From assembly GCA_036971615.1 (NCBI GenBank), contig JAYKKR010000008.1:372001-436000 (forward strand): 64,000 nucleotides of DNA, in the 5' to 3' direction. The DNA is from Amyloporia xantha (Eukaryota; Basidiomycota; Agaricomycetes; Polyporales; Adustoporiaceae). Shown here piece by piece: positions 5,288-62,660 of the stretch; within the stretch, counting starts at the first letter, position 1, and every line of letters starts with the position of its first letter. Made by a program: the position numbers and the translations under genes. The notes under the pieces are model-generated. The model searched no databases. It saw only the letters and a list, made by a program, of their open reading frames with translations, and had not been told where the DNA came from.

Positions 5288-5636
5288 CCGAAAACGCCTA
5301 GACGTTGAGTGCCATTGCAAGCTGGTCTGGAAATCTCCGACATTATTCCTCGTCGAGTCGTAGGTTCGTTCCCACCCTTTTGATGATCGCAAGATTTCGA
5401 AGTCCGCCGTGGCAACTCCTCCCTGGCGCGCGTACAGGAATAGCGCTACGGCTGCTGACAACTGAGGCAGACCTCAAAAACACAAACTACCACCACCGCT
5501 GTACAGTGTACCGTAGACAATTGCTCCCAGCCGGGGCCAGCTCTGTGACTGCAACTCACGAACGTCGTTGGACTACAAAGGGCTCTCAAGAGTGCAGCTG
5601 CCCCCTTTGAAGACCATCCAATTTATCACTACCGAC

Positions 5637-6547: not shown

Positions 6548-6882
6548 GGGATTAGCTACGCGGCCTTATGCAGCCTTATGCCAGCTCGGACATTGTAAAT
6601 ACACCATGAAGTAACTGCAGAACAACCATCACACATTTCGATCGAGGATGGCGACTGCAGATTTGGTTCAGATTCCGACGCTGTGTTGCGCAGTTGACCG
6701 ACTTGTCGTGTGCGCACTTGCATCCACCAGACTCGACGATGCACTTGATTCAGCAACCACAGTCTCTCAGCCCCACGACACAAAATTGCGCCGACGCCAC
6801 CGTGCCGGAAGCCATCGGGCAAAAATGACTCGACCGCACTGTCTACGCTCTGCCTCTGACCGCCACGACCGCCTCGCTCGCC

Positions 6883-8394: not shown

Positions 8395-10500
8395 CGCACC
8401 CGAAAAACGACGATTCGAGCTCGCAAGACTGTCCATACACCGAGGAGTAGGCCTTCTCACGGCGTCCGCCACGTTCTACGCGCTCGCTGGCCCCTTCTCA
8501 CTAAACTCCTTCTTGTACAGCCGTTTCGCTCCTGTGACGTCCGGAGGGTGCAGGCGCGTTCCAAGTAGATAGCGCAGGTCTCCATGGGCCGTCTGAAACC
8601 CTCACGACGGTGTCCCCGATGCTCAATCTCGTACCCCCTAGCCGTTTTGCCGGACGACGAAATTTCAAATTTCGTCCGGCACGCTTGATAGAGGAATGGG
8701 CACGGTAGAATACTACTGTGGACAGATGCGCACGCTCCGCTGCGTCCTCTTGCCCCAGGACGCTGGCCTCCCCACGGCGTCCGGTACATTCTGTGAGCTC
8801 GCCAGCACATTCTCGCTAAACTCTTTGTACAGCTCGCCTTCCTGCGAAATCCACCACTTCGCTTCCACAGCGCTCGGAGGGTGCAGGATGCGCCCTAAGT
8901 AGATAGTGCAGGTGCGTATGGGCCGTCTGAAGCCCTCACGACAGTGCCCTCGGCGCTCAGTCTCGTCCCCCATTACCCATCTCGCCGGACGACGAATTTT
9001 CAAATTTCGTCCGGCACGCTGGATAGAGGCATGGATACGATAGAATACTACCGCGGACAGATGCACGCGATGCGCTGTAGATGTGTCGAGGACGTCCGGT
9101 GCGTCCTCTTGCCCCAGGCAGTCATTCGCACTCACCGACATCCCGTCTAGTAGACGGTTCTGGCGTGACCAATATCCGTCTCCAGCCGACCAGACAGTGC
9201 GTAGCGCATTGCGAGTATACGCACAACAATGATGAGCTTTGAATGAAGTACTCGGAGTGTGCCTCCGAGTGCCCATTGGCACTCCTCGCCAGCTCTGTCG
9301 CCGGACGACGAAATCTTCAAATATCGTCCGAACCGCCCGCGAGGTGAGTGGGAGCCGTCTAGTGTGAACGTAGATAGATGCATGTGGTGTACCGAGGGCA
9401 TCTGGTCAGTTCTCCACACTGCCGACAACGTTTGCCCTCGTTGAAACCCCATCCATCAGTCGTTGCGGAAATCACCAAACTCGAGCGCCAGCCATTCGGA
9501 TGGTGAAGAGCGCGTCCAGAATAGCTAGACAGAGAAGGTATTCTTGGTCCAAGTCCTCGGATCAAGATTCCCATCGTTCGTGAGCGTTCTCCATCTGCCG
9601 CCCTGACATATGACAAGATACTACCAGCGTTCCATCTCGCCGGACAGCAAAATATCAAATATCGAACGCAAGGCTTGCGGGGCGACAGAACGTGGACAGA
9701 GCAGACGCAAAAGCGTCCTATGCACGTCGTCTGGCCCTCGACTCGGCCATGGTGTCCGATCGCGAGAGGTCAATAATCGTGAACCGCAGCTGGACACTGA
9801 TGTGGTGTGCTGCTGACGGCGAGGGCAAGAACATAAGGTATGTTTACCATCTCTGTGATGGCACCTCCACGACGCTGACGTGGCTCCGCGTCCGCTCTTT
9901 CTCCCGAAAGAAAAACTGGGAAGTTCCGAGTGCTGACCATCAGCGTTTAGCAGCGGACGAACTGCGTGCCATTCAAAGCAACACTATGTGCCATTCGGTG
10001 TGTTCGCGGCCCACTGCTGACAGCGAGGACACTCCGGAAGAGATATGAGGTACGTAGCGTTGATGCGGCCTTCACATCTTACCCGGAAGCAAAACTGCGG
10101 GCTTCAAGCGCAGAGTGTTAGCGGTGAGCAGCAGACAGCGTATACGCCATTGGGAGTCACGGTACGCACCATGACATTTTATCAATATCGCTCTCGTAGC
10201 GGTTCCCCAGTGCTAACACCAGCGCCGACGAATCTAGATGTTTTGAGAAGTGGTGAGGCCCACGCTCGAGTGGATCAACAGCATGTTCGTGCTCTCACCT
10301 GTGTCATTGTCTCCTGATGCTGGGGCATGCTCGTCATCGCCCGTCTCGCCGGACAACGAAATCTCGATTTTTTTATCACAGGGAGCCTGATGGAGAGTAT
10401 CCATTGCACTCGCCGGACAGGCCTCCTGTGGCTTATACATCTTCTCTTCCAGCTGCTTCGCCCGGGGCTGAATGTGTATGTTTTGAAATGTTGGAACCCC
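8395..10500. repeat. array of degenerate ~330-bp repeats with a palindromic core
   Basis: A near-palindrome, GCCGGACGACGAAATTTC followed by AAATTTCGTCCGGC, recurs in the same orientation at about 8649, 8984, 9300, 9639 and 10348, that is every 316-339 bp and then about twice that. The first two units are similar over most of their length (for example ACGGCGTCCG, CCTCTTGCCCCAGGACG and GGGCCGTCTGAA...CCCTCACGAC); later ones have drifted to little more than the core. The left arm carries an extra CGA relative to the right. Minus-strand ORFs through the array (8457-8810, 8713-9282) share short peptide stretches because of the repeats, but no protein family is recognised. Confidence 0.65.
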
Positions 10501-15117: not shown

Positions 15118-15458
15118 CCCGAAAACGCCTAGACGTTGAGTGCCATTGCAAGCTGGTCTGGAAATCTCCGACATTATTCCTCGTAGGTTCGTTCCCACCC
15201 TTTTGATGATCGCAAGATTTCGAAGTCCGCCGTGGCAACTCCTCCCTGGCGCGCGTACAGGAATAGCGCTACGGCTGCCGACAACTGAGGCAGACCTCAA
15301 AAACACAAACTACCACCACCGCTGTACAGTGTACCGTAGACAATTGCTCCCAGCCGGGGCCAGCTCTGTGACTGCAACTCACGAACGTCGTTGGACTACA
15401 AAGGGCTCTCAAGAGTGCAGCTGCCCCTTTGAAGACCATCCAATTCATCACTACCGAC

Positions 15459-16369
15459 ATGGCCCTCTCACGTTCCTTCTCTTCTTCAAGGTTGCCTCAT
15501 GCATGCGTCAAAGCTGCGTCCACAGTGGCTGCTGCATCTCGGGTGAGTCCCGTCCATCCGCACCCCGTTTTCTCCATGTGCTCACGGCTTCTGTCAGAGC
15601 GTACTTACTCCATCTTGTAGAAATCACTCTGCTGCTCGGATCTCTCTCTCGCATCGTGCGCTGCTTCAGCTGCGCTCCACGACCCTGCTTGACACCGTAC
15701 TGTAGAACGTCTCCCTCGGCTCACCTCGCCTTTCAGTACAAGCAGCACCACCCGAAAGTCACCGGGGCGACCTTCACCGCATCCAGATGTTCTGAAGAAC
15801 CCTTCGCCCGAAGCAGTCTACAAGCTGTTCATGGCCCGCGCCGCTTTGTGTGCTGATGCAGAGTCAGCCCGGGTCCTCCTAGGGGACAACCCGACGAAGG
15901 ACGTCTATTACAACCAAATCTTGCATAACATGCAGTTCGTCTTCTATTACATCAACACGGTCGACGTCGAGGTGCGGCCGTTCCTCGCCTATCGTCGTGA
16001 TCCACGCTGACAGGGCGCCACTGGCAGGAATTCAAGACGGCGACTGTCAGACGGGGCTCGCGCATCTCTAAAGCGAGAGTGGCCCTGCTCCAGTATGCAA
16101 TCACGACCTACGGCTGGCTGGAAGCGGCGATCAGTGCGGGCAGCGCTCCGGAGCATGCGCGCAACCTTGAGCATGTGATGCTCCAGCTGCGCATGGTGAT
16201 GTTCGTTATCTAGGCGTACGAGGATCCGGAGGGCACAGATGACATTAAGTATGCGATGGTGTGCGAACACGTTCTGTCCAAGTTCCTCCTCATTGTTGAT
16301 GCGGTGACGAATGCGGCGGGGGGTGCGCCGGAAGACTTTATCATCTACGAGCCAAGCGAGAGCTCTTGA
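15459..16369 (+). pseudogene. unknown protein gene with shared lesions, copy 2
   Basis: Near-identical to 5637-6547. The presequence-like start, first intron, TGA at 15690-15692, the TGA and frame change near 16008, and the TAG near 16211 are all reproduced. The lesions therefore predate the duplication, or the true gene structure is something I have misread in both copies in the same way. Confidence 0.6.
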
Positions 16370-16404: not shown

Positions 16405-17222
16405 TCTAAAAAGAGTGGGAGGACGGGGTCGATGTGGCGCGCGTAGCGCGCGTGGCAAAGCACGTTGGCCGCGTGGCTGCCACGCGATGGTGCAGGTCCT
16501 CCCATAGGACTGGCTGCGCGCAGCGCGAGAGTTGGCGCTGGGCTCCGCGCAGCGGCAGGGGGGTCCGCGGGGGTCTCCCCCGCGCAAGGGTCAAAAATAA
16601 AATACTTACAGCATTCCCGCTGCAACGGGAACGGGCATCGGCTCAGTGCAGCGGAAGGTACGGGTCGTTCACATAACGTGCAGCATGGGCTCGCGTCGGG
16701 TCTCCCAGTGCACTACTATGTATGTATGTCCGATGCAACGGGAACCCGTGTTGGTGCACTCACGGCAGTATGCAAAAGAAAGTAAAATATGGCATGCCCG
16801 CTGCAACGGGAACAGGCATCGCATCGGGCCTCTCCCCTATGCACTATGTCCGCTGCGCAGCAACAGGAAGCAGCTGGCTCTGCGCAGTGCTCTTTCTTGC
16901 ACAGGGATTCAAAATGAATTTAATTTAAAGTACTGCTACTGAACGGGAAGGGTTGACGGGCACAAAGTGCCCCCTTAGGGCTGTACTTCCATGCAATGGG
17001 AACGGGTCACAGGCACACTGGGTGAAATCTACACCTCAAATTCAGCGAGATTTTGTAATTTGAATTACTCCAATTATATTTCTTCAATTGGAGGTGCACA
17101 GCACCTCTGTGGCGAAGCCACAGGTAAAGTCGCTAGAAGACACTAAATTATAATTATTATCATTATTTGTATTCAAAGGCGCAAAGCGCCTTGCGTGGCA
17201 AAGCCACGGGTAAAGACACTAG
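16405..17222 (+). mobile_element. non-autonomous Helitron-like element, first of a pair
   Basis: The 818-bp element begins TCTAAAAAGAG directly after a host A and ends in CTAG. Its 3' end has the Helitron layout: hairpin CGTGG-CAAAG-CCACG at 17194-17208, a 10-nt spacer, then CTAG at 17219-17222. There is no target-site duplication, as expected for rolling-circle insertion into an A^T site. It has no Rep/helicase coding capacity and is full of small GC-rich hairpins, so it must have been moved in trans. The paralogous locus at about 6595 (GACATTGTAAAT) keeps the empty target. Confidence 0.8.
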
Positions 17223-18004
17223 TCTAAAGAGAGTGGGAGGACGGGGTCGATGTGGCGCGCGTAGCGCGCGTGGAAACCACCTGGCACCCACGTTGGCCGC
17301 GTGGCTGCCATGTGAGCGCAGGTCCTCCCATAAGGTGGCTGCGCGCAGCGCGAGAATTGGCGGCGGGGGTCCGCGCAGCGGCAGGGGGGTCCGCGGGGGT
17401 CTCCCCCGCGCAAGGATCAAAGTAAAATACATTCTTGCTGCAACGGGAACGGTCCTCCCATAGGAGCTGTGTGCAGCGCGAGACTTGGCACTGGACTCCA
17501 CGCAGCGGAAGGGGGGTCCGTGGGGGTCTCCCCCGTGCAAGAATCCAAAGTAATATACAGCATTCCCGCTGCAACGGGAACGGGCACCGGCTCAGTGCAG
17601 CAAAAGGCACGGGTCATCCCTATAGCGTGCGGCACGGGCTCGCATCGGGAGACTCTCTTCCCCTCACAGAAATTCAAAATGGATGTAATTTATAGTGTCG
17701 CTATTCTGAACGGGAATCGGTGACGGGCGCGAAGCGCCCCCTTTAGTCCTGTACTTCCCCGCAACAGGAACATAAGGCACGGGCACGAAGTGCCCATTGC
17801 TTGGCACACTGGGTTAGTATATGAGGCCTCAAATTCAATGAAGAATTAAAATTTGAATCACTCTTATTATATTTCTTCAATTGGAGCACCTCCGTGGCGA
17901 AGCCACGGGTGAAGTCACTAGAAGATAGATTATAGTTGTTTGTATCATTTGTATTCAGAGGCGCAAAGCGCCTTACGTGGCAAAGCCACGGGTAAAGACA
18001 CTAG
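17223..18004 (+). mobile_element. non-autonomous Helitron-like element, second of a pair
   Basis: It starts TCTAAAGAGAG immediately after the CTAG of the first unit and ends in the same 3' structure: hairpin 17976-17990, spacer GGTAAAGACA, CTAG at 18001-18004, followed by host T. At 782 bp it resembles the first unit from end to end, with scattered substitutions and indels. The exact head-to-tail join with no host base between is what read-through or concatemeric rolling-circle transposition would leave. Confidence 0.8.
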
Positions 18005-18318
18005 TTGTATTTGAATACACGGTGATATCAATGCAGAACGACCATCACACAATCCGATCGAGGATGGCGCGGCTGCAGATTTGGTTTATTCAGATTCCGA
18101 CGCTGCGTTGCGCAGTTGACCGACTGGTCGTGTGCGCACTCGAAGCGATAAGTATGCATCCACCAGGCTCGACGATGCATTTTATTCAGCGACTACAGTC
18201 TCCCAGCCCCACGACACAAAATTGCGCCGACGCCACCGTGCCGGAAGCCATCGGGCAAAAATGACTCGACCGCACTGTCTACACTCTGCCTCTGACCGCC
18301 ACGACCGCCTCGCTCGCC

Positions 18319-19251
18319 ATGCAACGCTCTGGCTGCCCAGATGAAGTCAGGATCGGGATCCTCGGTGAGCACGAGCCTAGCATGTCACCCATGCTGACGC
18401 TGACTCTGTGTGGGTGTAGCGCTGCAGGGCGCATTCGCGGAGCACCAGGTGATGCTGCAGAAGGTGTCGCTGCGGACTCGGATCCGCGTCGTGCTGGTGC
18501 GGACGGAGGACGACCTGGCAGCGTGCGATGCACTCATCATCCCCGGCGGAGGTGCGTAGCTTCGTTCGTTCGTTTTGCAGCACAGTGGCTGACGCACTCT
18601 CTCCCTGTCCTCCGCGACGGCAGAGTCGACGACGATCGCACTGCTCGCGCGCCTGGCGGGCTTGCTGGGGCCGCTGCGCGAGTTCGTGAGGGCGAAGCCG
18701 GTGTGGGGCACATGCGCGGGGGCGATCCTGCTCGCGGCGGAGATCGAGGGCGCGAAGCAGGGCGGACAGGAGCTGCTCGGCGGGATGGCCGTCACCGTCG
18801 CGCGCAACGGATGGGGCTCGCAGGTCGAGTCGTTCGAGGCCCCGCTCGAGGTGGACGGCCTGCGCGACGCCGAGCGGCCCTTCCACGGGGTGTTCATACG
18901 TGCACCCGTGAGCCGCATTCTTTCTCTCTTTCTTTCTTCTTCGCCGTATTGCTTGTTGGTCGAATGCACGCCCCTGACTCATGCTCATGTGCGCAGGTCG
19001 TGCTCGCGCTGCACCCCTCGCCCGCCGACCCGCCGCTCCAGATCGTCTCCCGCGTGCCTGCTGCGCTTCTACCCCGCATGCAGACGCTGGTCCCGCCCGA
19101 CGAGGACGACACGGATCCGCGTGACCCACGCACGATCGTCGCGCTGCGGCAGGGCCGCCATCTGCTCACGACGTTCCACCCCGAGCTCACCAAGGACAAC
19201 CGTTTCCACGAGTATTTCATCCGGGAGTGCGTGCTCCCTTCACTCGCGTGA
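18319..19251 (+). CDS. pdx2: pyridoxal 5'-phosphate synthase glutaminase subunit, copy 2
   Basis: Second intact PDX2. Exons are 18319-18364, 18420-18551, 18624-18907 and 18997-19251, again 238 residues. [15 protein letters not shown] with the nucleophile Cys, and TTFHPELT are all present. It differs from copy 1 at a few residues (RTEDDLAAC for [14 protein letters not shown] for PTDPP), and intron 2 has lost a C-rich stretch. About 280 bp of upstream sequence is shared, so the promoter was probably copied too; the Helitron pair now ends about 310 bp upstream of its start codon. Confidence 0.95.
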
Positions 19252-50725: not shown

Positions 50726-51338
50726 CTCTTTTGCTCGCTTTCCCGACCCACCTCTTCATCCCCTACTTCCATTTCGTCTAATACCCCCTTTTGCGCTTCT
50801 TCCGCTTCTTCGACGATCTTGCGCACGTCTAGTGCAACCTCCTTTCGCGCCTTATACGGTACCACACGGAACGCTGCGTACCGTAGTCTTGACACCGCTC
50901 CTGTTAGTTCCGCGAGTATGTAGGCTCCTCCTTTTGTACGCCGTATGACAATCATAGGCCCGAAATACCGGGGTTTTGACTTCCTGCTATGCTCCATCTC
51001 GATCTGTGAGTTCCGCACCAGCACCAGATTCCCCGCTGCGAACACAAAATCCTTGATCGTCCGTGCGAACCGCCGCTCAAAATCCTTGACCGATGCGTAT
51101 CGAGCCGCTAGCACCCTCCGCCGTACGTCCTGCAAATCCTCCGCCCGTTTGAGCAGCTGGCGCCCCCGGATTTCAAGTAGGTCCACATCGCTGATCTCCT
51201 TCCGGTCGGGCGGCACCAAGTAAGTAGCTTCCGCCAGGTCGAAAGGGAAGACTGGTTCGATCCCGTGCGCGATAAAGAAAGGCGAAGTGCCCGTCGATTT
51301 CTGAATCGTCACCCGTTCCGCCCAAAACACAGCATGCA
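50656..51338 (-). CDS. Gypsy element B, integrase C-terminal part
   Basis: Minus-strand continuation of the integrase at 62661-63966, separated from it by the insertion of Gypsy A. It reads HAVFWAERVTIQKSTGTSPF, GIEPVFPFDLAEATYLVPPD, a coil (RQLLKRAEDLQDVRRRVLAA), an SH3-like C-terminal domain (AAGNLVLVRNSQIEMEHSRK, KPRYFGPMIVIRRTKGGAYI), then a Glu-rich tail to 50656. The join at HPKVMH/AVFW-type sequence is clean except for the duplicated ATGCA. No chromodomain is seen. Confidence 0.85.
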
Positions 51339-51604
51339 TGTAAGGTACCCCTACGGGTACCCTACAACATCTTATCTATACTGTACATATTCGTCTTCAC
51401 TATTACCTAATACGATCCTGTGGATCGCGGCGTTGGGCAACTGTACAGTACATTGACGTATGCACGTGTCTCGCGCGCGCGTGCCCTTTTAAGGACACGC
51501 GCGTAGGGAAGAAAAGTACCTTTCTTACTTACACCTGTACATCGCACTCTTCTAATAGAAGTTGGTGCAACGTACTTCCGTCTGAGTAAGAGCCAGGTCT
51601 TACA
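51339..51604 (+). repeat. Gypsy A 5' LTR
   Basis: TGTAAGGTACCCC... to ...GGTCTTACA. Compared base by base by eye it appears identical to the 3' LTR. It contains small inverted repeats, for example CGATCC-TGT-GGATCG at 51413-51427 and CGCGCGTG...CACGCGCG near 51476-51504. Confidence 0.95.
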
Positions 51605-51725
51605 CTTTTTTACGTTCCAATCGGAATCTCCGAAATCGTCTATATAGACGAGTGCGGATCTGACACGGAAATAGAAGCATCGCTTCTTTTTCACATCGCA
51701 TACAATCCCGGACATCCCCATTAGG

Positions 51726-54700
51726 ATGACCAAACGCAAAACTCGGAGCATCACCGCTCGAGAAATGCGTGAAGCGACGGGCGAACCGACTGCACCAGTC
51801 GGTGTACCCTCACCCGCTTCACGAATAATGTCATGGAGGGCCCGCGTAAGTGACGCAGGATCGGACAGGGGACCAGGACCATCCGAGCCAATAACGCCCG
51901 GGCAGAGTGGTCCCGAACGAGTGGTGCACCCTTCGGGTGGACCCACAGAAGCACAGGATTCACCGAATCCTGTGAATCGACTCCCATCGGCCTCACAAGT
52001 GGGCGATGGAGACGATGCGCTGTCATACGTAGCGCCCGCCGTAAACGACGAGATAAGGGAGAATGAGCCACCACCAGGTGATGCTCGCTCATCCCCCCTC
52101 TCTCCCATCCCCAGCCCTATGGCTGGAGTGACGTTGGAGAGAGCGAGGGCACCCTCGAGGACGTCCGCGCGTAGCGTTCGCAGTGAAACGCTACGCAGTC
52201 GGATACAAGAGGCGTTTGATCGCAGCCGAAGGGAGCTCGATACAGCGACCCAGCGCGCGAATCACGAACTCGTCGTGATGCGCGCCCGGATCCACCTGTG
52301 GTATCCAAAGTTGTACAACAATTGCCCAGGTACCTGGGCTTAGCTCTGTGCACAACTTGGCCAGGGTTTTACAAGGCTTGTAATACAACTGGGCCTGCTG
52401 ATTGACAATCCACAAACCTGCCTAGCCTTTGTACAATGTTAACCTGGTTTGTAAATCCGCATTTTTGACAATTTCAGTTAAATACTGGGCAAGCTTGTAA
52501 TAAATATAATCATATATTTCTGCTGTACAGGTCATATATCATTATATATCATTAAAATCCGCTTATTTCTGCCAATCCATATATGGTAATATCCAATACA
52601 GGATTATTATATATCATTAGAATCCGCTTGAATGGGCCATTCCAAATATGGTAATAGCCAGTATATACACCATTAGAATTCGTTTGAATGGGCCATTCCA
52701 AATATGGTAATATTCAATATAGAATTGTTATATATCATTGGGATCCATTTGAATGGGGCAATACAAATATGGAATAAAATGTAGGGGTATTATATACCAT
52801 TAGAAAGCATTTGAATGGGTCATTCCCAATATGGTAATGATCCATTTGGGGCTGGCACATCAATAATGATGATTTCGGGGTGGTTAGATTTTCGTATTGT
52901 CGCGTTTGAATCAGTATTTTGCATTTTCTGGCTTAATCGGGCAAGCTAGGGGTCTGGAAAAATTTATCTGGGATCCTTGGATGATGCTCTACGACTTTCA
53001 TTTCTGCCATATATGGTAATATTTCCTTTTTGGAAAGTGTCAATAGTGTTCACAGGGCTATATAGCAGGTGAATATCAGTGAGAATGTGTATCAGAAGTG
53101 GTATAATGTAGTGCAGCATGTGGTGTGAATGGCTAGTGAACAGTCAGAGACGGCTATGTAACACAGATGTTCACACGTCTCATTGCTTTTGCTATTTGAC
53201 AATCAGCCAGTCGGTGCACACCATGCATTGCTAATGTTTGAGGTAGATAGTATACTGCACACAGTCAATCACTTGACTGATGAGTGTACTCAACAGTCAC
53301 TCATATCCAGTATTTAGTTATTGGCAGTTGGCAGTCAGTCAGTCAGCCAGCCAGCCAGTCAATGAGTCAGTCAGTTATAAGTGTGCACTCAGTCACTTTG
53401 TCTGCAACTGGCATTGGAGATGAACCTGATGAAGTTCAAACACAAGTCTGTACACAAATACACGTCTGTTCACACATATTGACAATGACTTGGTCAATAA
53501 CATAAGTGACTTTTGACCTGAGATCACAGTGACTGAGTGTGCACTTATGACTGACTGACTGACTGACTGATTGCCAACTGCCAGTAACTAAATACTGGAT
53601 ATGAGTGACTGTTGAGTACACTCATCAGTCAAGTGATTGACTGTGTGCAGTATACTATCTACCTCAAACATTAGCAATGCATGGTGTGCACCGACTGGCT
53701 GATTGTCAAATAGCAAAAGCAATGAGACGTGTGAACATCTGTGTTACATAGCCGTCTCTGACTGTTCACTAGCCATTCACACCACATGCTGCACTACATT
53801 ATACCACTTCTGATACACATTCTCACTGATATTCACCTGCTATATAGCCCTGTGAACACTATTGACACTTTCCAAAAAAGGAAATATTACCATATATGGC
53901 AGAAATGAAAGTCGTAGAGCATCATCCAAGGATCCCAGATAAATTTTTCCAGACCCCTAGCTTGCCCGATTAAGCCAGAAAATGCAAAATACTGATTCAA
54001 ACGCGACAATACGAAAATCTAACCACCCCCGAAATCATCATTATTGATGTGCCAGCCCCAAATGGATCATTACCATATTGGGAATGACCCATTCAAATGC
54101 TTTCTAATGGTATATAATACCCCTACATTTTATTCCATATTTGTATTGCCCCATTCAAATGGATCCCAATGATATATAACAATTCTATATTGAATATTAC
54201 CATATTTGGAATGGCCCATTCAAACGAATTCTAATGGTGTATATACTGGCTATTACCATATTTGGAATGGCCCATTCAAGCGGATTCTAATGATATATAA
54301 TAATCCTGTATTGGATATTACCATATATGGATTGGCAGAAATAAGCGGATTTTAATGATATATAATGATATATGACCTGTACAGCAGAAATATATGATTA
54401 TATTTATTACAAGCTTGCCCAGTATTTAACTGAAATTGTCAAAAATGCGGATTTACAAACCAGGTTAACATTGTACAAAGGCTAGGCAGGTTTGTGGATT
54501 GTCAATCAGCAGGCCCAGTTGTATTACAAGCCTTGTAAAACCCTGGCCAAGTTGTGCACAGAGCTAAGCCCAGGTACCTGGGCAATTGTTGTACAACTTT
54601 GGATACCACAGGTGCAGCTTCACCGTCGATTCCTCCATAAAAACGAGGAGCAAATCGCGTCCGAACGATTCGAACGCGCGACGTATAGCTCATCTACGGG

Positions 54701-55556
54701 AGGAGCATCGGATCTCGCCGATCGCCTCAATTCATACGGTAACCGTATGGTAGAGCGACCGTCGACATACCAATTCCACAAACGCTTCCTAGATGCATTA
54801 CCGGACGAAATATATCGTACGGTGATCACTGGGTACCGGCTTTCCGCCGAGCGCAATACGCTCAACCAGCTGGTAGATGCGGTGCGGGATTGGGAGACTG
54901 GCCAGGAAGGCGAAGCCTCCCGGCGGCGCGCTAGGCGCGCCATGCAGCCTACGGCTGCCAACTCGAAAAACCCGCCAACTACGATGACGTCGGTGGGAAG
55001 GGCTACCGCCCCAGGGGGGCGGAGCCATCGCTCGAGGAATCAACCTCGAGTCGATCGCCCCACGACCCGGGGCGAAACGTCCCCGGGTACCGTACCGGCG
55101 CGCACACACGAAACTCGTGGCGCGCGCGACGCGGTCCCGACGCATGATCACGCTAACTTGACATGCTACGGGTGTGGCGAGAAGGGCCACATATCGACTA
55201 ACTGCCCGCATCCTGCGGGTAAGGCAAAGCCTGCCCCACGGATGTTCGCGCAAAGAGTAATGGACGACGAGCCCAGTAATGATCAGCCGAGTACGCCTGG
55301 CGTACTCGAGACGGTGCAGGAGCACACCGAGGAGGACGCCCTACTGCACGCTGAGGACGAGGGGGACGAGGTGTACCCAGTATCCGACTACGGGTACGGG
55401 GGCTCCCAGTACTCATCCCACGGCGAACGAGACCAGTCGTACGACGACGACCTCCAGTTTGGAGCCATGCGTTTCGCGGGTATGCGCATCGAGTCCAGCG
55501 AGGCGCATACCTCCGACACGGAGGCGGTGGCGCCCCAATGCTATACAATGGGGTAG
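51726..55556 (+). pseudogene. Gypsy A gag, split by fold-back element
   Basis: The N-terminal part starts MTKRKTRSITAREMREATGE at 51726 and runs to VVMRARI at 52292. Coding resumes at 54615 with LHRRFLHKNEEQIASERFER, FHKRFLDALPDEIYRTVITG and the CCHC knuckle CYGCGEKGHISTNCPHP, ending with an acidic region at 55556. The insert shows no target duplication here, and the capsid region between the two parts looks too short, so a deletion probably accompanied the event. The last 19 bp overlap the protease-pol frame. Confidence 0.75.
52293..54614. mobile_element. fold-back (palindromic) transposon, copy 2
   Basis: A 2,322-bp relative of the element at 43311-45666 with the same ends, CACCTGTGGTATCC. 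The central spacer is in the opposite orientation relative to copy 1, so the element sits the other way round. The flanks (CCCGGATC and CAGCTTCA) show no direct repeat. Both arms share a set of substitutions absent from copy 1. Confidence 0.9.
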
Positions 55557-58500
55557 CCCCATCAGCCCGTACACTAAAGGAAGCATGGCTGTATGACCCC
55601 CGAGTGCGCCGGATTACCGACCCCATGGGTCAGCCGAGGCGCACGCCAGAACTACAGCACACTCTGTGTGCCGAAGTTGACATCAACGGTGTGAAAGCGT
55701 ATACGCTATTCGACACGGGATGTACGACGGACTCAATATCGCCTGAAATGGCGTATCTGAGTCACGCCGACCGCATCGATCTGCGGGAACAGATGGGGCT
55801 GCAATTGGGGACCAAGGGCAGCCGTACACGCATTAATTATGGCGCGCGCCCGACCCTACGGGTCGGCCCAGTGCACTGCAAGCACTACATGGATGTGGTC
55901 GATATCGACCGCTACGATGCCATATTGGGCACGGTGTTCTGCAACACCTATGGTGTGGTGCTTGACTTCAAACACCACACCATCCAGATCAATGGTGTCC
56001 GTGTGCCAGCATATACGGCGGTCGAAGAGGCGGCCGTATTAGCAGCACGCAAGGACGGCAACCCACGCCGGAACCCGCGACTGCATGTAGCAGTCGTCGG
56101 ATCGGATGCGGGTCTATAGGAACCCGCGGCGAGTTCTACTACGGCAGAACCCCCTCGCTCTCGCTACGCGGGCGATTCTGCGGTGTTTCCGAGGGGGGAG
56201 GGGGACGGCATTTCCGTCATTCCTCCCAGAAGTGGGAAACACCCAGTAAGAACTATTCCGCCCCGGAAGGGACGGAATCACCGGGAACAAGCACCTGTAC
56301 TCGCGGAGCGATCGGTGCCGAGCCTGCACTCGTCCAACGAGAAGCGGGACAAGTTCGGTCGATCAGACCCATGGGGTCTGAACGAAGTCATGGACCAGGC
56401 GGCCAAGAATCTCATCATTGATGAAGAGATCCGGGCGACCTTACGTCCCGACTACACTTCATTGCAAGATAAGTGGAATAAGGAATTTGAGGACATAATG
56501 TGCCCTCCTCCGCCAGGATTACCCCCCCTACGGGAGGTAAACCATCGGATCCCACTTATCGACCAGGATAAACGATACAAGTATCATTTACCCCGATGTC
56601 CTGACGCCATGAAGCCGCAACTGCTCGAAAAGATCGAGCGGTATACGGCGAATGGCTGGTGGGAATCCAAAATGGCTACACAAGCGGCTCCACTTCTTTG
56701 CATAGTAAAGAAGTCGGGCAACACGCAGTGTCGTCGATGCACGACAGCGCAACGACAACACCATAAAAGATGTGACGCCATTTCCCGATCAAGACCAAAT
56801 CCGAATGGATGTGGCCCGGGCGAAGTTTCGCTCGAAGATCGACCTGTCCGACGCCTACGAGCAGATACGAATAGCTGCCGACGACGTCTGGAAGACGGCG
56901 TTTTCAACGCCGTACGGCACGTTCGTGAGCCATGTCATGCAACAAGGAGACTGCAACGCCCCAGCGACGTTCCAGTCCCTCATGACAGCAATCTTTCGAG
57001 ATTGCATAGGCCGATTCGTCCATGTTTACCTCGACGACATCTTCGTGTTCTCCGACTCGGTCGAAGACCACGAGGAACATCTCGCGGTAGTACTTAAGAA
57101 GCTTCGCCAGGCGAAACTATACTTGAGTCAAACTAAATGCGACTTCTTTTCGCAACGCATGGATTGCCTGGGTCATCTTATAGATGACCGAGGGTTACAT
57201 GCCGACTCAGATAAGATGGCGAGGATTCGCGAATGGCGAATCCCGCGATCCTATCACGAGGTACAGCGATTTTTGGGACTAGTTAATTATCTGGCACATT
57301 TCATGCCAGATGTATCGGCCTACACGTCGCCTCTAGCGGACATGGCACACAACGGCAGACCGTTCGTGTGGCGCCCGCTGCACTCCAAGTGCCTTGAATC
57401 CATCAAGGCATTGGCTTGCAAGGCCCCGATATTGAAGCCAATTGACCCATCCAATCCTGAACCCATATGGGTCATCAGCGACGCATCCATACATGGAGTC
57501 GGCGCTGTCTATGGACAAGGGCCAGATTGGCGTACTTGCCGACCGGCGGGATTCATGTCTAAAATTCACTAGTGCCCAGCGAGCGTACAAAACGTACGAA
57601 CACGAGGCACTAGGAATCCTAGAAGCTCTCCTCAAATGGGAGGACAAGCTATTGGGCCGCCGGATCCGCATTATTACGGATCATAAGGCGTTGACGTTCT
57701 TTGAGGGCGTCTCGAACCCAACGAACCGACAGGTTCGCTGGTACGAATACCTCTCACGATTCCAGTACGAAATTTCGTACGTGGAAGGACGTGAGAATAA
57801 GGTCGCCGATTGCCTGTCTCGTTATTACGAGAACGACAATTCCGACGATTTTACACCCCCACAGGACTATGCCAATGCGGATGTGCGCCTGGACCCGGAA
57901 CACGATGACCTACCGGTCAATCGCGTCCTGGAACTCAGGGCAGGACGTCTGACATCCCCTACACCGACATTAGCAGAAGTCCGTGAAGCGCGGGACGTGG
58001 AGGCGGCTGAGTTGGCCACAGCCAATCAAACCAGCCCCCAACCACCCGTCCCGGACGACTCAAGCGACCCCACGGTCGCTGAAGCCCTCCAGTCAGGACC
58101 GCCCCTAAGGGAGCGCGTCGAACGGGAGATAGACTTTACCCGCACGGTACGAGGGGGATACGCCCATGACCCACTGTTCAGTAAGGTCAAGGACGCCCCG
58201 AGCGAGTACCCAGCCTTCGTAATACGCGAAGGACTGATTTACTCAAAAAATCGCCAAGGCGATGAAGTACTGTGCATCCCTAGGGTGCCGCTCAAAAGGC
58301 GACTACTGCCCGAGGTCGTTATCGACCACGGGCACACGACTATCGGGCACTTCGGGCCACAGAAGACGTCTGAGTACATCAGACGCTCCTTCTGGTGGCC
58401 GAAGATTGGCCGAGACATTGACAAGTTCTGCATTACTTGCGGAACTTGTCAAACGGCAAAGCCGCGCAACCAGTTGCAAGCAGGCCTATTGCACTCATTA

Positions 58501-59617
58501 CCGATTCCACGGTTCCCGTGGAATTCGATAGCGATGGACTTTGTAGGTCCATTCCCCGGGTCCAACGGGTACGACTACCTATGGGTGGTAGTATGCCGGT
58601 TGACGAATATGGTACACCTGGTGCCCATAACTACCACCAGTACTGCCTCGCAATTGGCGATGCAGTACCTGAGGAGATAGTCCGCCTTCACGGGCTACCC
58701 GAATCGATCGTTTCGGACCGAGACTCGAAGTTCACGTCGAAGTTTTGGCGTGAACTCCATCGTCTCCTAGGGGCGAAACTACTGATGTCGACATCCTTTC
58801 ACCCCCAGACGGACGGATTGTCTGAACGGACAATCCGCTCGATTTCACAAATACTGCGATCGGTGGTATCCCGGACCAGCTCGACTGGTACGAGAAGATC
58901 CCCATGGTGGAATTCGCCTTGAATTCCGCCACAAGCAGCACAACGGGATTCGCACCCTTCGAGTTGAACTACGGGTATCTGCCTCGCACGCTGAACGGGA
59001 TCAGCACGGAATCCTCGTACGCAGGAGTACGCGAGTTCGCCGAGCGAGCTCGTGGTAATCTCGAGATGGCGCATGACGCCATCATCGAGAGCAGAGTGCA
59101 GCAGGCCCACCAAGCGAATAAACATCGCCAGCAGGAACCCGCCTTTACGGTTGGGTCCCTGGTGTACCTGTCCACTCAGAACCTCGCGCTTCCGAAGGGA
59201 CGCGCGAGGAAACTGATGCCGAAATATATCGGCCCCTACAAGGTGATGCGTGCCCATCCGGAATCGTCCAACTATACGTTGGAACTACCGGAAGCACTGA
59301 AGGAACGCAGGATTCACCCCACGTTCCACGCATCCCTGCTACGGAAACACGAGCCTAACGACGACACGATGTTTCCGCATCGTGAAGCGCAGTCGTACTA
59401 CGACTTTGGGCAGAACGAAGACCAGGAATGGCTGGTCGACGAGATCGTCGGACACCGCTGGGACGGCAACCGAGTGGAATTCCATGTACGGTGGACCCTA
59501 GGGGACCACACGTGGGAACCATACTCGCATTGCAAGGAGTTGGCCGCCTTGGAGGACTACCTAACACTCCACGGAGTGAAAGGCTATCGTTCACTTCCGC
59601 GCAAGGCGCGGAAGTGA
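55538..59617 (+). pseudogene. Gypsy A pol: protease, RT, RNase H, integrase, chromodomain
   Basis: Protease (LFDTGCTTDSI) is followed by an in-frame TAG at 56117. The RT finger/palm has LLCIVKKSGN, a frame change near 56730, then IDLSDAYEQIRIA, STPYGTFVSHVMQQG and the catalytic VYLDDIFVFSDS. RNase H has VISDASIHGVGAVYG, a frame change near 57562, then YEHEALGILEALLKW and ITDHKALTFF. Integrase has the HHCC zinc domain (HGHTTIGHFGPQ...CITCGTCQ) and Asp-Asp-Glu in AMDFVGPFP, VSDRDSKFTSKF and HPQTDGLSERT, with frame changes near 58670 and 58880. A chromodomain follows (EWLVDEIVGHRWDGNRVEFH, WTLGDHTWEPYSHC), ending at 59617. All catalytic residues are kept despite five breaks. Confidence 0.9.
59594..59614. 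repeat. hairpin abutting the pol stop codon
   Basis: CTTCCGCGC, loop AAG, GCGCGGAAG: 9-bp perfect arms ending on the base before the TGA at 59615. Another perfect 9-bp hairpin with loop TAA follows at 59620-59640. Confidence 0.85.
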
Positions 59618-59834
59618 GAGTACGACCCTAAGGGTCGTACACTGGCAGGACGGACAATGGGACTTAGCGTCGAAATCCCTCGACGCGACCACATGACGCG
59701 CACGTGAAGGGTGGCGCGCCGGCGAACTCCGGCGGCGATTCAACCTTGTTGAGCATACTCTACGAGCGCGTGGGGCACCTACCCGCTCTTCATCCCGCCC
59801 CAGTTGGCGTCAAACAACTGACAAAAAAAAAAAA

Positions 59835-62189
59835 ATGGACGCGAACAAGGGCGGCCCACCAGCTGGTGGCCCGACCTTGGACGAAGACGAGCTCATGGCT
59901 CCCTTCTCCCCGCTGCGTTCCTACCCGTCCTCGCCGCAACCCACCACCGCCGCCGACCCGACCACCGAGCCCCCGCCAGCGACACTCCCCGCCGCCGCCG
60001 TGCCCCTACCACCTTCGCCCGAATCTGCCCCGGTGTCGACGTCTGACGTCGACCTGGAGGTAGCGGTGCGACGATTCGCGATGACGCCCCGTCCGCGAAC
60101 CGACCCTCCCGCCCCGTTCCTGCTGCCACCACCGGTGAACCCGTGGGTGGGACAGGGACAACACCTCCTCTTGTTGCACGGCGGACCGTGCAACATTTGC
60201 GACGCGTTCCGCGCGCACTTTTACGGTGCGCTCATGAACGATGATCAGTGCCAGCAGGCGAACGACGGTGCGCAAGCTGCCTTGCAGGACATCCTGTTCC
60301 AACACTGGAGCGATGGAGGTTTCCTGAAGGGGAAGGACCTGGATCGCCGCATGCGCGAGATCCAGCATGCCTACGATGACGCCTGCCGGGAACGCGAAGC
60401 GTTCTCCAGCGACCGCGACGACCTCCTTCGGGTGAACGCGCAGTTGCGACAGGAGCGGGAGGACCTGGCTCGAGAGAACCAGCTCCTCCTGGAACGAGTC
60501 ACCTCGTACCCGGACGCCCCAACGTCCGCGGCAGCGACCATCGGTCAGCTGCAACGAGAGCTGGGACTGGCGCGCACACAGCGCGACGCAGCGCAAGGGC
60601 GCACGCAACTCCTAGAGGAGGAGCTGCGCCGGAACGCTGCCCAGAGTGTCGTCCACGAAAGGACGTACGCCGCCGCCGTGGCCGCTCCGGCACCTGCGAC
60701 GACGCCAGTAGCGTCGTCCTCGAGAGTGGACCCCACCACCGGTGACCCCACGGCCTCGTTCATCGACGAGGTCGCAAGAGCACCGGGCCCAGAGAGCCCG
60801 GCCCCCAAGGGCAAGGGAAAGGCGAAGGTATCGTCGGCCGGGGCCCCCAAGGGACTTCGTGGCGACATGGACTGGGACGAAATGTCCTCTTCATCCTCAC
60901 TGGATCAAGAGGACAAGGAGGCCCGGGCGGACAAGGAGGCCCGTAAGGCTCACCTCGCCCGCAATCGCCAAATCATGCGTGGATGGCGACGGCCATCGAC
61001 TCGCCCCGCTGCTGCCGGCGAACCACCCGCACCGCCACCATCGGGAATGCCCAGGGCATCCGACAGGTCGTTCGGTGTACCCGTCCCCCCAACGGACTGG
61101 CCAAAGGGTGTGCCCGTGCCGGCCAACACCAACTACTACCTGGCTGGTAGTTGGGCAGCATTCATCCCGCGCGAACGGCGCGACGCAGACCGTATCCTTG
61201 AAGAGGCTACGGCTGCCGCTGGTGAGGCCCGCACGCGAGTGCTGGACCTCATCACGCAGATGAATCGGAACTCGGCCCTTCGAGGAGTCGAAGGGATGCA
61301 GTCCCTACTCGACCACTGGCGTAACCCCGACAAGGGAGTACGACCGGCTGGTCCTCCCGCTGGTCCTGCAGGGAACGCGGGCCCGTCCACCAGTACTGGC
61401 GGAGGGAACAAACGTAAGTTGGTGTCGTATGACGACCTCCAACCCCCTCACGGCACCTCCGCGAGCGCGAAGCGCACCCGACGGTTGCCGCAGCCCACGC
61501 GCCACTCCACCAACCAGGAGTGGTACGCGTGGTACCTGCAAAACCCCACGCAGGTGCCCCCTAGCATCCGGCGCGAGGCGACTGGCAACCCTAGGTTGCA
61601 GGACGTCATCGCGTTCGTCGAACTAAGGAACCTGGCACCGCCCGTGTCCTCAGGTGCGACGTCACGCAATGCGTGGCTCGCGACAGCCATCCGGCTGTTC
61701 TCGATCCGAGACCTGTACATGTTCATATTGCAGGTCAGCAATTATCCCATAGGGACAATTGTTCGAGCTGCTCCCTATCCACTGCCGGGCGAGAACGCTA
61801 CGATCTACGACGTAGCGCGCTGGGTAGCCGCCCGAGGGTACACGGCCCAGACGGTACGTGTATTCGAGGACTATGCGCGGGTCGAGCGCAACTGGACCGA
61901 AGGACGTCCCCTGGACGCGCCCGAGCCGTTCGCCTCAGCACCGGCGTCGTATAACGACGCGATCAGTACACTCGTCCCGGCTGCGGACCAAATGCCGGCG
62001 TTGCCCGCCACCGCGATCACGTCGCTCGCGTCGGTACCCACCGCACCCGGCATGGCAGTGCCCCCGCCTGCTGTGGCCGTACCTCCGCCGGTGCATGGTG
62101 CTGTCGCGCCGCCGCCTCCTGACCAGGCCGGCCAGGTTCAGGGAGACCCCCCTGCTCCTGGGCCGGGAGACCAAATGCAGACGGATTGA
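59835..62189 (+). CDS. Gypsy A third ORF, 784 residues, function unknown
   Basis: An intact sense-strand ORF in the position where env-like genes sit in some retroelements. Layout: Pro/Ala-rich N-terminus; a short conserved-looking segment with HGGPCNICDAFRAHFYGALM (residues about 115-135); a strong coiled coil at about 170-270 (DDLLRVNAQLRQEREDLARE, IGQLQRELGLARTQRDAAQG); a basic patch (KGKGKAKV) and acidic-serine patch (DMDWDEMSSSSSLDQED); a middle region (LAGSWAAFIPRERRDADRIL); and a C-terminal folded-looking domain at about 550-690 (NQEWYAWYLQNPTQVPPSIR, AWLATAIRLFSIRDLYMFIL, DVARWVAARGYTAQ). A Pro-rich tail closes it. No signal peptide or membrane helix is seen, so it is not an obvious envelope. 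Gag-like or nucleic-acid-associated roles are possible guesses. Twelve A residues precede its ATG. Confidence 0.75.
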   Translation: MDANKGGPPAGGPTLDEDELMAPFSPLRSYPSSPQPTTAADPTTEPPPATLPAAAVPLPPSPESAPVSTSDVDLEVAVRRFAMTPRPRTDPPAPFLLPPPVNPWVGQGQHLLLLHGGPCNICDAFRAHFYGALMNDDQCQQANDGAQAALQDILFQHWSDGGFLKGKDLDRRMREIQHAYDDACREREAFSSDRDDLLRVNAQLRQEREDLARENQLLLERVTSYPDAPTSAAATIGQLQRELGLARTQRDAAQGRTQLLEEELRRNAAQSVVHERTYAAAVAAPAPATTPVASSSRVDPTTGDPTASFIDEVARAPGPESPAPKGKGKAKVSSAGAPKGLRGDMDWDEMSSSSSLDQEDKEARADKEARKAHLARNRQIMRGWRRPSTRPAAAGEPPAPPPSGMPRASDRSFGVPVPPTDWPKGVPVPANTNYYLAGSWAAFIPRERRDADRILEEATAAAGEARTRVLDLITQMNRNSALRGVEGMQSLLDHWRNPDKGVRPAGPPAGPAGNAGPSTSTGGGNKRKLVSYDDLQPPHGTSASAKRTRRLPQPTRHSTNQEWYAWYLQNPTQVPPSIRREATGNPRLQDVIAFVELRNLAPPVSSGATSRNAWLATAIRLFSIRDLYMFILQVSNYPIGTIVRAAPYPLPGENATIYDVARWVAARGYTAQTVRVFEDYARVERNWTEGRPLDAPEPFASAPASYNDAISTLVPAADQMPALPATAITSLASVPTAPGMAVPPPAVAVPPPVHGAVAPPPPDQAGQVQGDPPAPGPGDQMQTD

Positions 62190-62316
62190 CCCCTGGGGGC
62201 CGACTGCTCTGCAATTGCCTCCACGCCAAGGAACGCCGCGCGGCCGGGGTGATGGAATTCCTGACGAGGAGATCCCCTAGGGATCCCGTAGAGTAATAAA
62301 CTCTCGTCAACTCTAC

Positions 62317-62378
62317 GACGGACACACCGTGTCCGTCATTATCTTTCGCATTTTCTGTGGACTCGTGAGACGAGTCCA
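62317..62378. repeat. two perfect hairpins before the polypurine tract
   Basis: GACGGACAC, loop ACC, GTGTCCGTC at 62317-62337, and TGGACTCGT, loop GAG, ACGAGTCCA at 62358-62378; the second ends directly against the purine tract. Confidence 0.85.
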
Positions 62379-62389
62379 GTGGGGGAGGA
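62379..62389 (+). other. polypurine tract of Gypsy A
   Basis: GTGGGGGAGGA immediately before the TG of the 3' LTR, the expected plus-strand primer site. Confidence 0.85.
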
Positions 62390-62655
62390 TGTAAGGTACC
62401 CCTACGGGTACCCTACAACATCTTATCTATACTGTACATATTCGTCTTCACTATTACCTAATACGATCCTGTGGATCGCGGCGTTGGGCAACTGTACAGT
62501 ACATTGACGTATGCACGTGTCTCGCGCGCGCGTGCCCTTTTAAGGACACGCGCGTAGGGAAGAAAAGTACCTTTCTTACTTACACCTGTACATCGCACTC
62601 TTCTAATAGAAGTTGGTGCAACGTACTTCCGTCTGAGTAAGAGCCAGGTCTTACA
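62390..62655 (+). repeat. Gypsy A 3' LTR
   Basis: Same length and, by eye, the same sequence as the 5' LTR; followed by the ATGCA target duplication. Confidence 0.95.
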
Positions 62656-62660
62656 ATGCA

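What the first reader, a model, noticed from the sequence alone, without database searches (positions are those of the whole stretch)
51413..62378. Gypsy A is crowded with small perfect hairpins, mostly with 3-nt loops
Across LTR, gag, pol and the 3' region I find perfect inverted repeats with arms of 6-9 bp and 3-nt loops at 51413-51427, 51786-51802, 51953-51973, 54925-54941, 55205-55219, 55289-55307, 55851-55865, 56364-56380, 57171-57189, 58504-58524, 59594-59614, 59620-59640, 62317-62337 and 62358-62378. More have longer loops (52169-52196, 58814-58837). With even base composition a 9-bp arm with a fixed 3-nt loop is expected about once per 260 kb, but six occur here in about 9 kb. Most lie inside conserved coding sequence. 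Repeated template switching during DNA synthesis, or selection for RNA or ssDNA structure, could produce this.
Basis: partly seen in the sequence, partly recalled or inferred. Interest (0 to 1): 0.88.

Follow-up and report, generated by a model that had tools for sequence, protein, structure and literature searches.

The report
Hairpin-tiled fungal retrotransposon family
One family of jumping genes in what is probably a mushroom-type fungus is predicted to fold into small hairpins along most of its length, about as strongly as two well-known RNA phages, and computer comparisons suggest that this is kept up while the element is active.

Summary
All 16 listed hairpins exist. Perfect hairpins (arm >=7, loop <=10) are about 8 times denser than in dinucleotide shuffles, and excess folding stops at the element's edges. 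The excess survives synonymous-codon shuffling (53 against 11.8), while six stretches around other reverse-transcriptase genes sit at chance (15 against 14.4). 350-nt MFED is 16-39% in six family members, against 28.9% for phage MS2. It is 28-39% in 67-72% amino-acid relatives, 6-16.5% at 42-53%, and 3-8% in three more distant elements. An RT-less LTR element sharing A's polypurine-tract/LTR junction is also hairpin-rich.

Differences fixed between families create hairpins as often as they destroy them (97:90); private changes of single copies mostly destroy them (11:30). Paired changes exceed slid controls about twofold. Gained pairs are spread over both arms, which argues against template switching that rewrites one arm.

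Best reading: a retrotransposon counterpart of 'genome-scale ordered RNA structure', maintained during the replication cycle. The selected strand and the function are undetermined. 'Mostly 3-nt loops' holds only in part.

The parts
51339..51604 (+). 5' LTR (TGTAAG...CTTACA), identical to the 3' LTR; 5-bp target-site duplication ATGCA at 51334-51338 and 62656-62660
62390..62655 (+). 3' LTR
51726..52292 (+). gag 5' part (the frame stays open into the insert, to 52343)
   Evidence: (ORF 51726-52343); third-position excess of differences between families
52293..54614 (.). 2.3-kb near-perfect palindromic insert (arms about 1.06 kb, about 190 nt between them); stands where copy C45 has about 1,170 nt of its own sequence between the gag flanks; not part of the hairpin phenomenon
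54615..55556 (+). gag 3' part with CCHC zinc knuckle
   Evidence: PF00098
55538..56119 (+). aspartyl protease
   Evidence: PF13650 above cut-off, PF13975 below it
56183..57572 (+). reverse transcriptase region, read in more than one frame in this copy (copy C45 matches the RT profile 2-203 in one 658-aa frame without a stop)
   Evidence: (PF00078 match at C59:428802-429176 = window 56802-57176, profile 61-203)
57442..58680 (+). RNase H, integrase zinc-binding domain
   Evidence: PF17917, PF17921
58904..59617 (+). C-terminal part of pol: Tf2-1-like SH3 domain and a chromo-like domain below the Pfam cut-off
   Evidence: PF24626 53.4 bits; PF00385 21.5 bits, cut-off 25.1
59835..62189 (+). ORF3, 784 aa, no Pfam match, and none of 8,000 scored candidate proteins a homolog; third-position excess between families
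51952..51974 (+). hairpin arm 10 loop 3
52169..52196 (+). hairpin arm 10 loop 8
55288..55308 (+). hairpin arm 10 loop 1; 9-10 of 10 pairs kept in 6 of 6 other copies aligned there
56363..56381 (+). hairpin arm 8 loop 3; one pair changed on both sides and kept in C6 and C23
56692..56714 (+). hairpin arm 8 loop 7, 8 of 8 pairs in all 8 copies shown there
   Evidence: helix 11
57171..57189 (+). hairpin arm 8 loop 3
57390..57410 (+). hairpin arm 8 loop 5, one pair changed on both sides and kept in C34 and C12
58504..58524 (+). hairpin arm 9 loop 3
58814..58837 (+). hairpin arm 9 loop 6
59591..59617 (+). hairpin arm 12 loop 3 at the end of pol
59620..59640 (+). hairpin arm 10 loop 1
62317..62337 (+). 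hairpin arm 9 loop 3 in the 3' untranslated region
62358..62378 (+). hairpin arm 9 loop 3 directly upstream of the polypurine tract; at the same place in the RT-less element X a similar sequence can form 7 of the 9 Watson-Crick pairs (compared by eye)

Best explanation
Element A is a Ty3/Gypsy LTR retrotransposon of a clade whose body, from the leader through gag, pol and ORF3 to the 3' untranslated region, is tiled with short local hairpins (loops 0 to about 25 nt), mostly inside coding sequence. Shown by computation: the excess; its concentration in this clade and in an RT-less LTR element with the same polypurine-tract/LTR junction; independence from codon choice and composition; covariation between families; balance of gain and loss in differences fixed between families against net loss in private changes of single copies; turnover of individual hairpins while density stays high. 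Inferred: while the element cycles through RNA and cDNA, variants that keep the molecule locally self-paired are favoured, by ordinary point substitutions in either arm, so that overall foldedness is selected more than any particular hairpin. [quoted passage not shown] Most likely function (inferred, untested): local pairing keeps the genomic RNA compact for packaging and closed to annealing with antisense or small RNA. Whether the selected strand is the genomic RNA or the minus-strand cDNA is not resolved.
For: Density 51 against 6.3 and 53 against 11.8 in synonymous-codon shuffles, with 15 against 14.4 in six stretches around other RT genes. Mean z of 120-nt windows -2.0 to -4.0 on both strands in five clade members, -0.44 to +0.24 in five other Gypsy stretches and two host stretches. 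350-nt MFED on the plus strand: A (54615-62388) 22.8, C34 20.4, C6 (second half) 16.0, L041 39.3, L042 33.8, L053 28.5%; controls MS2 28.9, GA 21.2, L043/L044/L046 7.6/3.2/2.8, host stretch -2.1%. Against synonymous-codon shuffles 13-26% in four A ORF stretches, 38.7 and 27.9% in L041 and L053, 4.6-8.4% in three other elements (2-8 fragments each). Boundaries at the element. Relatives at intermediate distance are intermediate. Covariation in a 919-column RT alignment of 10 copies: 24 of 214 pairs changed on both sides, against 1-5 when slid and 16.0 when shuffled. Fixed changes in arms matched at the true partner 32 of 285, against 13-17 at slid partners. The derived base lies in a hairpin as often as the ancestral one in between-family changes (97:90), but not in private changes (11:30), p = 0.005. 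Positions turn over: A shares 9 of 21 centres with L041 (5 of 22 counted from L041) but 2 of 22 with L049, and L041 shares 0 of 20 with L049 (chance 0.6-0.9). Element X, with an ORF that shows no match to A's proteins in our searches, is hairpin-rich too.
Against: No strand or wobble signature: MFED differs little between strands, column-shuffle excess is 43.9% on plus and 40.8% on minus, and broken pairs are not preferentially G.U. So nothing singles out the RNA; but MS2, GA and Qbeta show no clear G.U preference in the same test (few cases), so the test is weak. Arms are only mildly protected: odds ratios 0.58-1.10 for changes fixed in whole groups, several not different from 1; with single representatives 0.36-0.80. 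The covariation excess over slid partners is only about twofold. Derived bases form hairpins 3.4, 2.0 and 1.6 times as often as the two other bases in groups gA, g34 and g6, but also 1.6 times in private changes. In 'further pair types' was not above its shuffles (73 against 78.6). The gradient is not monotonic: L041's group is more structured than A, and L049 (16.5%) equals C6 (16.0%); L043, outside the clade, has MFED 7.6-8.4%. Nothing was tested in the laboratory, and no DNA from another species was available.
Confidence: 0.6

Rival explanations
1. Replication-coupled arm-to-arm correction: during reverse transcription the nascent strand folds on itself, and single mismatches within a hairpin are copied from one arm to the other, so that arms evolve in concert without any benefit to the element.
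For: Covariation and gain/loss balance in differences fixed between families, net loss in private changes; no strand or wobble preference; excess also in the codon register that pairs positions 1 and 2; occurrence in the RT-less element X, which may share the machinery; concentration in one RT clade.
Against: It explains upkeep better than origin: the 7 hairpins with three to five gained pairs had their changes split over both arms. Breaking changes are nearly as frequent in arms as elsewhere, so any correction is weak. The excess is somewhat smaller in the register pairing positions 1 and 2 (A 3.8-fold against 4.5 and 5.6; C6 1.9-fold against 4.1 and 5.1), as expected if synonymous sites do much of the work.
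Confidence: 0.2
2. Template switching (quasi-palindrome or four-point events) that rewrites a whole arm as the complement of the other in one step.
Against: Two-change gains fall in one arm 7 times and in both arms 7 times; all 7 hairpins with three or more changes are split; 46 of 67 have a single change. Clustered one-arm replacement is not the rule.
Confidence: 0.05
3. DNA-level role: the hairpins matter as cruciforms or as single-stranded cDNA, for example for strand transfer, integration or recombination, rather than as RNA.
For: Symmetry between strands; perfect centres of 0-1 nt occur in A.
Against: Loops up to about 20-25 nt are enriched too; a known RNA-only genome (MS2) is nearly as symmetric, so symmetry does not favour DNA.
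Confidence: 0.1
4. Chance, base composition, codon usage or protein repeats.
For: The element is GC-rich in parts and ORF3 is of low complexity in places; codon shuffles of A retain about 12 hairpins, so part of the count follows from the protein.
Against: Dinucleotide and codon shuffles; the other elements sampled and host stretches of the window near chance; covariation.
Confidence: 0.02

Closest known systems
[quoted passage not shown] PMC7642675, PMC7566573: passages read)
   Same: Folding energy well above sequence-order controls along the coding region; many consecutive stem-loops; overall level kept while many individual pairings differ between relatives. The coronavirus paper gives 7.5-10.7% for HCV, about 15% for SARS-CoV-2, and 23.4% as the highest recorded among vertebrate RNA viruses in its analyses.
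   Different: Found here in an LTR retrotransposon clade that passes through DNA and lives in a fungal genome; MFED up to 39% by a similar but not identical calculation (non-overlapping 350-nt fragments, 8 dinucleotide shuffles each); stems short and local; no link to persistence or interferon can be drawn.
Structured genomes of single-stranded RNA phages (MS2, GA, Qbeta)
   Same: MFED of MS2 28.9% and GA 21.2% by the same script, nearly equal on both strands (Qbeta was not run there).
   Different: Fewer perfect hairpins per kb (MS2 2.8, GA 1.5, Qbeta 4.6, against A 7.2); they are RNA-only replicons.
Ty3 and Ty1 genomic RNA of yeast probed by SHAPE (PMC11381356: passages read)
   Same: LTR retrotransposon RNA with stable regions dispersed along the genome.
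   Different: The passages report a well-folded core of about 19-20% of Ty3 and low-SHAPE, low-entropy regions of up to 30% of Ty1 and Ty3; the passages I saw do not report element-wide excess folding. I could not compute Ty3 here.
miRNA-like regions in maize transposable elements (PMC10760457: passages read)
   Same: Local secondary structure measured in LTR elements.
   Different: [quoted passage not shown] here structure is spread over the whole body.
Template-switch / quasi-palindrome mutations (recalled, no paper read)
   Same: Yields perfect inverted repeats with short spacers.
   Different: The predicted one-arm rewriting was not found.

Membership tests
[quoted passage not shown]
[quoted passage not shown]
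[quoted passage not shown]
   9 of 21 centres shared at about 70% identity, 2 of 22 at about 57%, both structured
[quoted passage not shown]
   It is an integrated LTR retrotransposon; hence 'works like GORS', not a GORS virus
[quoted passage not shown]
   needs SHAPE/DMS probing
Ty3/Gypsy LTR retrotransposon | Paired LTRs, target-site duplication, gag zinc knuckle, protease, RT, RNase H, integrase | tested here: met
   for integrase the zinc-binding and SH3_Tf2-1 domains were matched, the catalytic core was not in the stretches given
Chromovirus branch of Ty3/Gypsy | Chromodomain at the end of integrase | tested here: inconclusive
   PF00385 21.5 bits, below the cut-off of 25.1
Template-switch mutation cluster | One arm rewritten as the complement of the other in one event | tested here: not met
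RNA structure under covariation | Pairs changed on both sides exceed slid and shuffled controls | tested here: met
   24 against 1-5 and 16.0; 32 against 13-17. The structure was derived from the same alignment, and 'further pair types' did not exceed its shuffles

The most novel reading that the evidence does not exclude
A retrotransposon lineage whose reverse transcription itself homogenises hairpin arms, so that the two arms of its many hairpins evolve in concert over the whole element, and any sequence mobilised by that machinery, including an RT-less partner with an unrelated ORF, becomes hairpin-tiled. This would be a self-templated, replication-coupled proofreading or palindrome-drive process.
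Probability: 0.15. Interest if true: 0.9.

Novelty: new variant of a known kind. Interest (0 to 1): 0.72.

Why it matters
Whole-genome RNA structure is a long-standing puzzle in RNA viruses, where its function is still debated. Here a comparable level of predicted structure sits in one clade of LTR elements while the other elements sampled in the same genome have little or none, and it is shared by a partner element without RT. That gives internal controls (same host, similar life cycle, integrated copies that decay) that RNA viruses lack, and makes the question of what pervasive structure is for, packaging, escape from RNA silencing, or a by-product of reverse transcription, directly testable.

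Tried and rejected
Template switching rewriting one arm: rejected. Chance, composition, codon use: rejected. Host-wide property: rejected as far as sampled; six stretches around other RT genes and the rest of the window are near chance, with modest exceptions at 8.6-9.6 and 16.3-18.2 kb. A G.U versus A.C test to tell RNA from DNA and strand comparisons: uninformative, since the RNA phages do not show a clear preference either. A first reading that low divergence of arms proves selection was dropped, because hairpins chosen for being perfect in one copy are biased to look conserved; searches use polarised changes instead, and there the protection of arms is mild and in several comparisons absent. 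A first impression that the excess is blind to codon register was also dropped: it is somewhat smaller where positions 1 and 2 pair. Search for DNA relatives in viral contigs (56 pattern hits, 0 relatives) and genome contigs (12 pattern hits, 0 relatives): nothing. Homologs of ORF3 (8,000 candidates scored, none at E <= 0.001): nothing. Paper searches for prior reports: 5 papers; 2; 42,651 holding one of three loose terms, 15 listed; 106 holding at least 4 of 5 terms, 12 listed; 28, 10 listed; 0; 4; 6; none of the listed titles and abstract beginnings describes element-wide hairpin tiling of an LTR retrotransposon. Most subscription papers are not in that library. From PMC6071253 only passages were seen and nothing was used.

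Rows left out of counts: the insert 52293-54614 is excluded from element A. The family alignments cover 51338-52292, 54615-57570, 57601-59903 and 60501-62655 of A. In one search, C45, C12, C27, L045, L047, L048, X and Qbeta were not run; L047 was not run. C34 is left out of segment S2 in the between-group counts (partial there; C12 stands alone). Only sites where whole groups agree enter the fixed counts. Fixed changes count a site up to twice (two ascertaining groups); one search counts each once. One search's 0 of 63 matched private changes is not a fair contrast with the fixed ones, because double changes are rare at low divergence, so the Fisher value printed for it is not used.
Full report
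SETTING. The window is C59:372001-436000 of an unnamed 46.8-Mb genome in 60 contigs. Named protein relatives of its pol among the 120 listed come from Grifola, Sparassis, Meripilus and Trametes, so the host is probably a polypore-like basidiomycete (inference). Element A is a Ty3/Gypsy LTR element with identical LTRs at 51339-51604 and 62390-62655 and a 5-bp target duplication ATGCA. It has a CCHC zinc knuckle, protease, reverse transcriptase, RNase H, the integrase zinc-binding domain, an SH3_Tf2-1 domain and a sub-threshold chromodomain, then a 784-aa ORF3 without a homolog found. A 2.3-kb palindromic insert (52293-54614) occupies the place of about 1,170 nt present in copy C45 and was left out of all counts for A.

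OBSERVATION. All 16 listed hairpins are there. Perfect hairpins with arm >=7 and loop 0-10 number 51 in 8,996 nt, against 6.3 in dinucleotide shuffles; with arm >=8, 26 against 1.9. The rest of the window holds 18 of the 44 arm >=8 hairpins, two of them in the insert. Two other places in the window, 8.6-9.3 kb and 16.4-18 kb, have modest clusters of repeated hairpins. The loop-length preference is weaker than reported: in A every bin of loop length from 0-2 to 17-20 nt is enriched, and loop 3 is the commonest in A and C6 but not in C34 or L041.

CONTROLS. Synonymous-codon shuffles of the coding stretches keep on average 11.8 hairpins against 53 observed in A, 15.1 against 63 in C45, 8.1 against 35 in C34, 4.7 against 18 in C12, 15.8 against 52 in C6, 3.0 against 16 in L041 and 2.5 against 17 in L042; six stretches around other RT genes give 15 observed against 14.4. 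Five of those six show 27-32% identity to A's RNase H/integrase proteins; L047 showed none. Mean z of 120-nt folding windows is -2.0 to -4.0 on both strands in A, C34, C6, L041 and L042, and between -0.44 and +0.24 in five other Gypsy stretches and two host stretches. Along the window the signal starts and stops with the element; the LTR and insert bins are weaker. An 801-nt stretch of pol folds with z = -9.25 against 20 shuffles.

HOW STRONG. With 350-nt fragments, plus-strand MFED is 22.8% in A (54615-62388), 20.4% in C34, 16.0% in C6 (second half), 39.3% in L041, 33.8% in L042 and 28.5% in L053. It is 16.5% and 12.3% in the 51-53% amino-acid relatives L049 and L050, 12.3% and 6.2% in the 42-45% relatives L051 and L052, 7.6%, 3.2% and 2.8% in L043, L044 and L046, and -2.1% in a host stretch (identities). 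So the trait falls off with distance, but not evenly: the L041 group is more structured than A itself, and L049 equals C6. The RNA phages MS2 and GA give 28.9% and 21.2% with the same script. The coronavirus paper reports about 15% for SARS-CoV-2, 7.5-10.7% for HCV and 23.4% as the highest recorded among vertebrate RNA viruses, with a similar but not identical procedure (PMC7642675, passages read). Hairpin counts and z show the same trend.

FAMILIES. A's LTR finds 21 places. Copies fall into groups with A (C45, C27, C22; 97.5-99.9% identical by segment), C34/C12 (80.5-91.0%) and C6/C23/C10 (72.8-84.5%), compared in six segments. The 13 pieces of six copies outside A's group and within it that were counted carry 3.8-7.3 hairpins per kb (arm >=7, loop <=10).

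EVOLUTION. In private changes of single copies, arms change at the same rate as the rest (odds ratio 0.94-0.98), and 0 of 63 changes in arms are matched at the partner (arm >=6). In differences fixed between groups, arms change at 0.58 to 1.10 times the odds of the rest, depending on group and arm length; with single representatives the ratio is 0.36-0.80. Protection is therefore mild. A matching change at the true partner is seen for 32 of 285 fixed changes, against 13-17 of 285 at partners slid by 1-3 columns (arm >=7). The derived base lies in a hairpin arm 97 times and the ancestral base in the same context 90 times in between-group changes, against 11 and 30 in private changes (Fisher p = 0.005). 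The contrast with the two bases that did not arise is smaller: 3.4-, 2.0- and 1.6-fold in the three groups and 1.6-fold in private changes. So hairpins appear to be renewed in the lineage that transposes and to decay in integrated copies. Gains come by single changes (46 of 67 hairpins with any), or by several changes spread over both arms: 14 hairpins with exactly two gained pairs split 7 same arm to 7 both arms, and all 7 with three or more are split. A 10-copy RT alignment of 919 columns gives 24 of 214 consensus pairs changed on both sides, against 1-5 for slid and 16.0 for shuffled pairings, though 'further pair types' is not above its shuffles. Centres are shared by 9 of 21 hairpins between A and L041 (5 of 22 counted the other way) and by 2 of 22 between A and L049 (chance 0.6-0.9), so positions turn over while density stays high. 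The excess is present in all three codon registers, somewhat less where positions 1 and 2 pair (A 3.8-fold against 4.5 and 5.6; C6 1.9-fold against 4.1 and 5.1).

THE PARTNER ELEMENT. A second LTR element, X, has 255-bp LTRs (26 matches) and a long repetitive ORF without a Pfam match above cut-off. Seven copies with paired LTRs measure 5.4-6.7 kb; two more pairs on C22 lie 9.9 and 60 kb apart. None of the 150 RT matches listed lies inside the seven; 59 of 209 candidates were not scored there. X shares the 13-base polypurine-tract/LTR junction of A: all 19 exact genome matches lie at A-family (9) or X (10) 3' LTRs, with 2 matches of the reversed control pattern. X is hairpin-rich too (mean z -1.9 to -3.2 in three stretches). 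Between two X copies at 86% identity, counted both ways, 10 of 174 pairs are broken on one side and 3 are changed on both sides and kept (subject to the same ascertainment bias). That X is moved by A-type machinery is inference from the shared junction.

WHAT IT WORKS LIKE. The whole pattern, meaning pervasive local folding, in coding sequence, not fixed in position and kept through turnover, is that of genome-scale ordered RNA structure. I do not file it as a member, because that name belongs to positive-strand RNA viruses. Which strand is folded in life is open: plus and minus strands are nearly equally structured, but so is MS2. Function is inferred only: compaction for packaging and closure against antisense or small RNA are the most natural candidates. 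The main rival is that this clade's reverse transcription itself copies one arm from the other.

LIMITS. No DNA from other species could be found in the two collections searched; host control sequence is mainly the window itself; the number of independent families is small (three A groups, the L041 group, L049/L050, X); nothing was tested in the laboratory.

Noticed in passing
window 52293-54614; L024:1556-3861: 2.3-kb near-perfect palindromic insert; in A it stands where copy C45 has about 1,170 nt, and in copy C34 a 97% identical palindrome sits at another site (around A position 55062) without a large deletion.
   Followed up: partly
L032:6473-9857, L033:1-1586, L040:1-3393: RT-less LTR element X (255-bp LTRs, 5.4-6.7 kb in seven copies, long repetitive ORF) sharing the junction GGGGAGGA/TGTAA with A's clade and also hairpin-rich.
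   Followed up: partly
window 59835-62189: ORF3 of 784 aa with no homolog found and a third-position excess of differences between families: an unexplained additional Gypsy gene.
   Followed up: partly
window 62358-62388; L033:1291-1331: A similar hairpin directly upstream of the polypurine tract in both A and X (7 of 9 pairs in X, by eye), although their ORFs show no match; possibly a discrete replication signal.
   Followed up: no
window 16405-17990 and 8642-9330: Repeated short hairpins (for example CCGTGGCGAAGCCACGG, CGCGGGGGTCTCCCCCGCG) inside repeated sequence of other elements.
   Followed up: no
window 5288-5901 and 15119-15723; 6598-7491 and 18014-18912: Two pairs of direct repeats at spacings of about 9.8 and 11.4 kb; the first looks like LTRs of another element, the second like a duplicated ORF region.
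   Followed up: no
C22:162472-222585: Two identical X LTRs about 60 kb apart, inside an A-type element, with unrelated sequence further in (L057): probably an X element swollen by nested insertions.
   Followed up: partly
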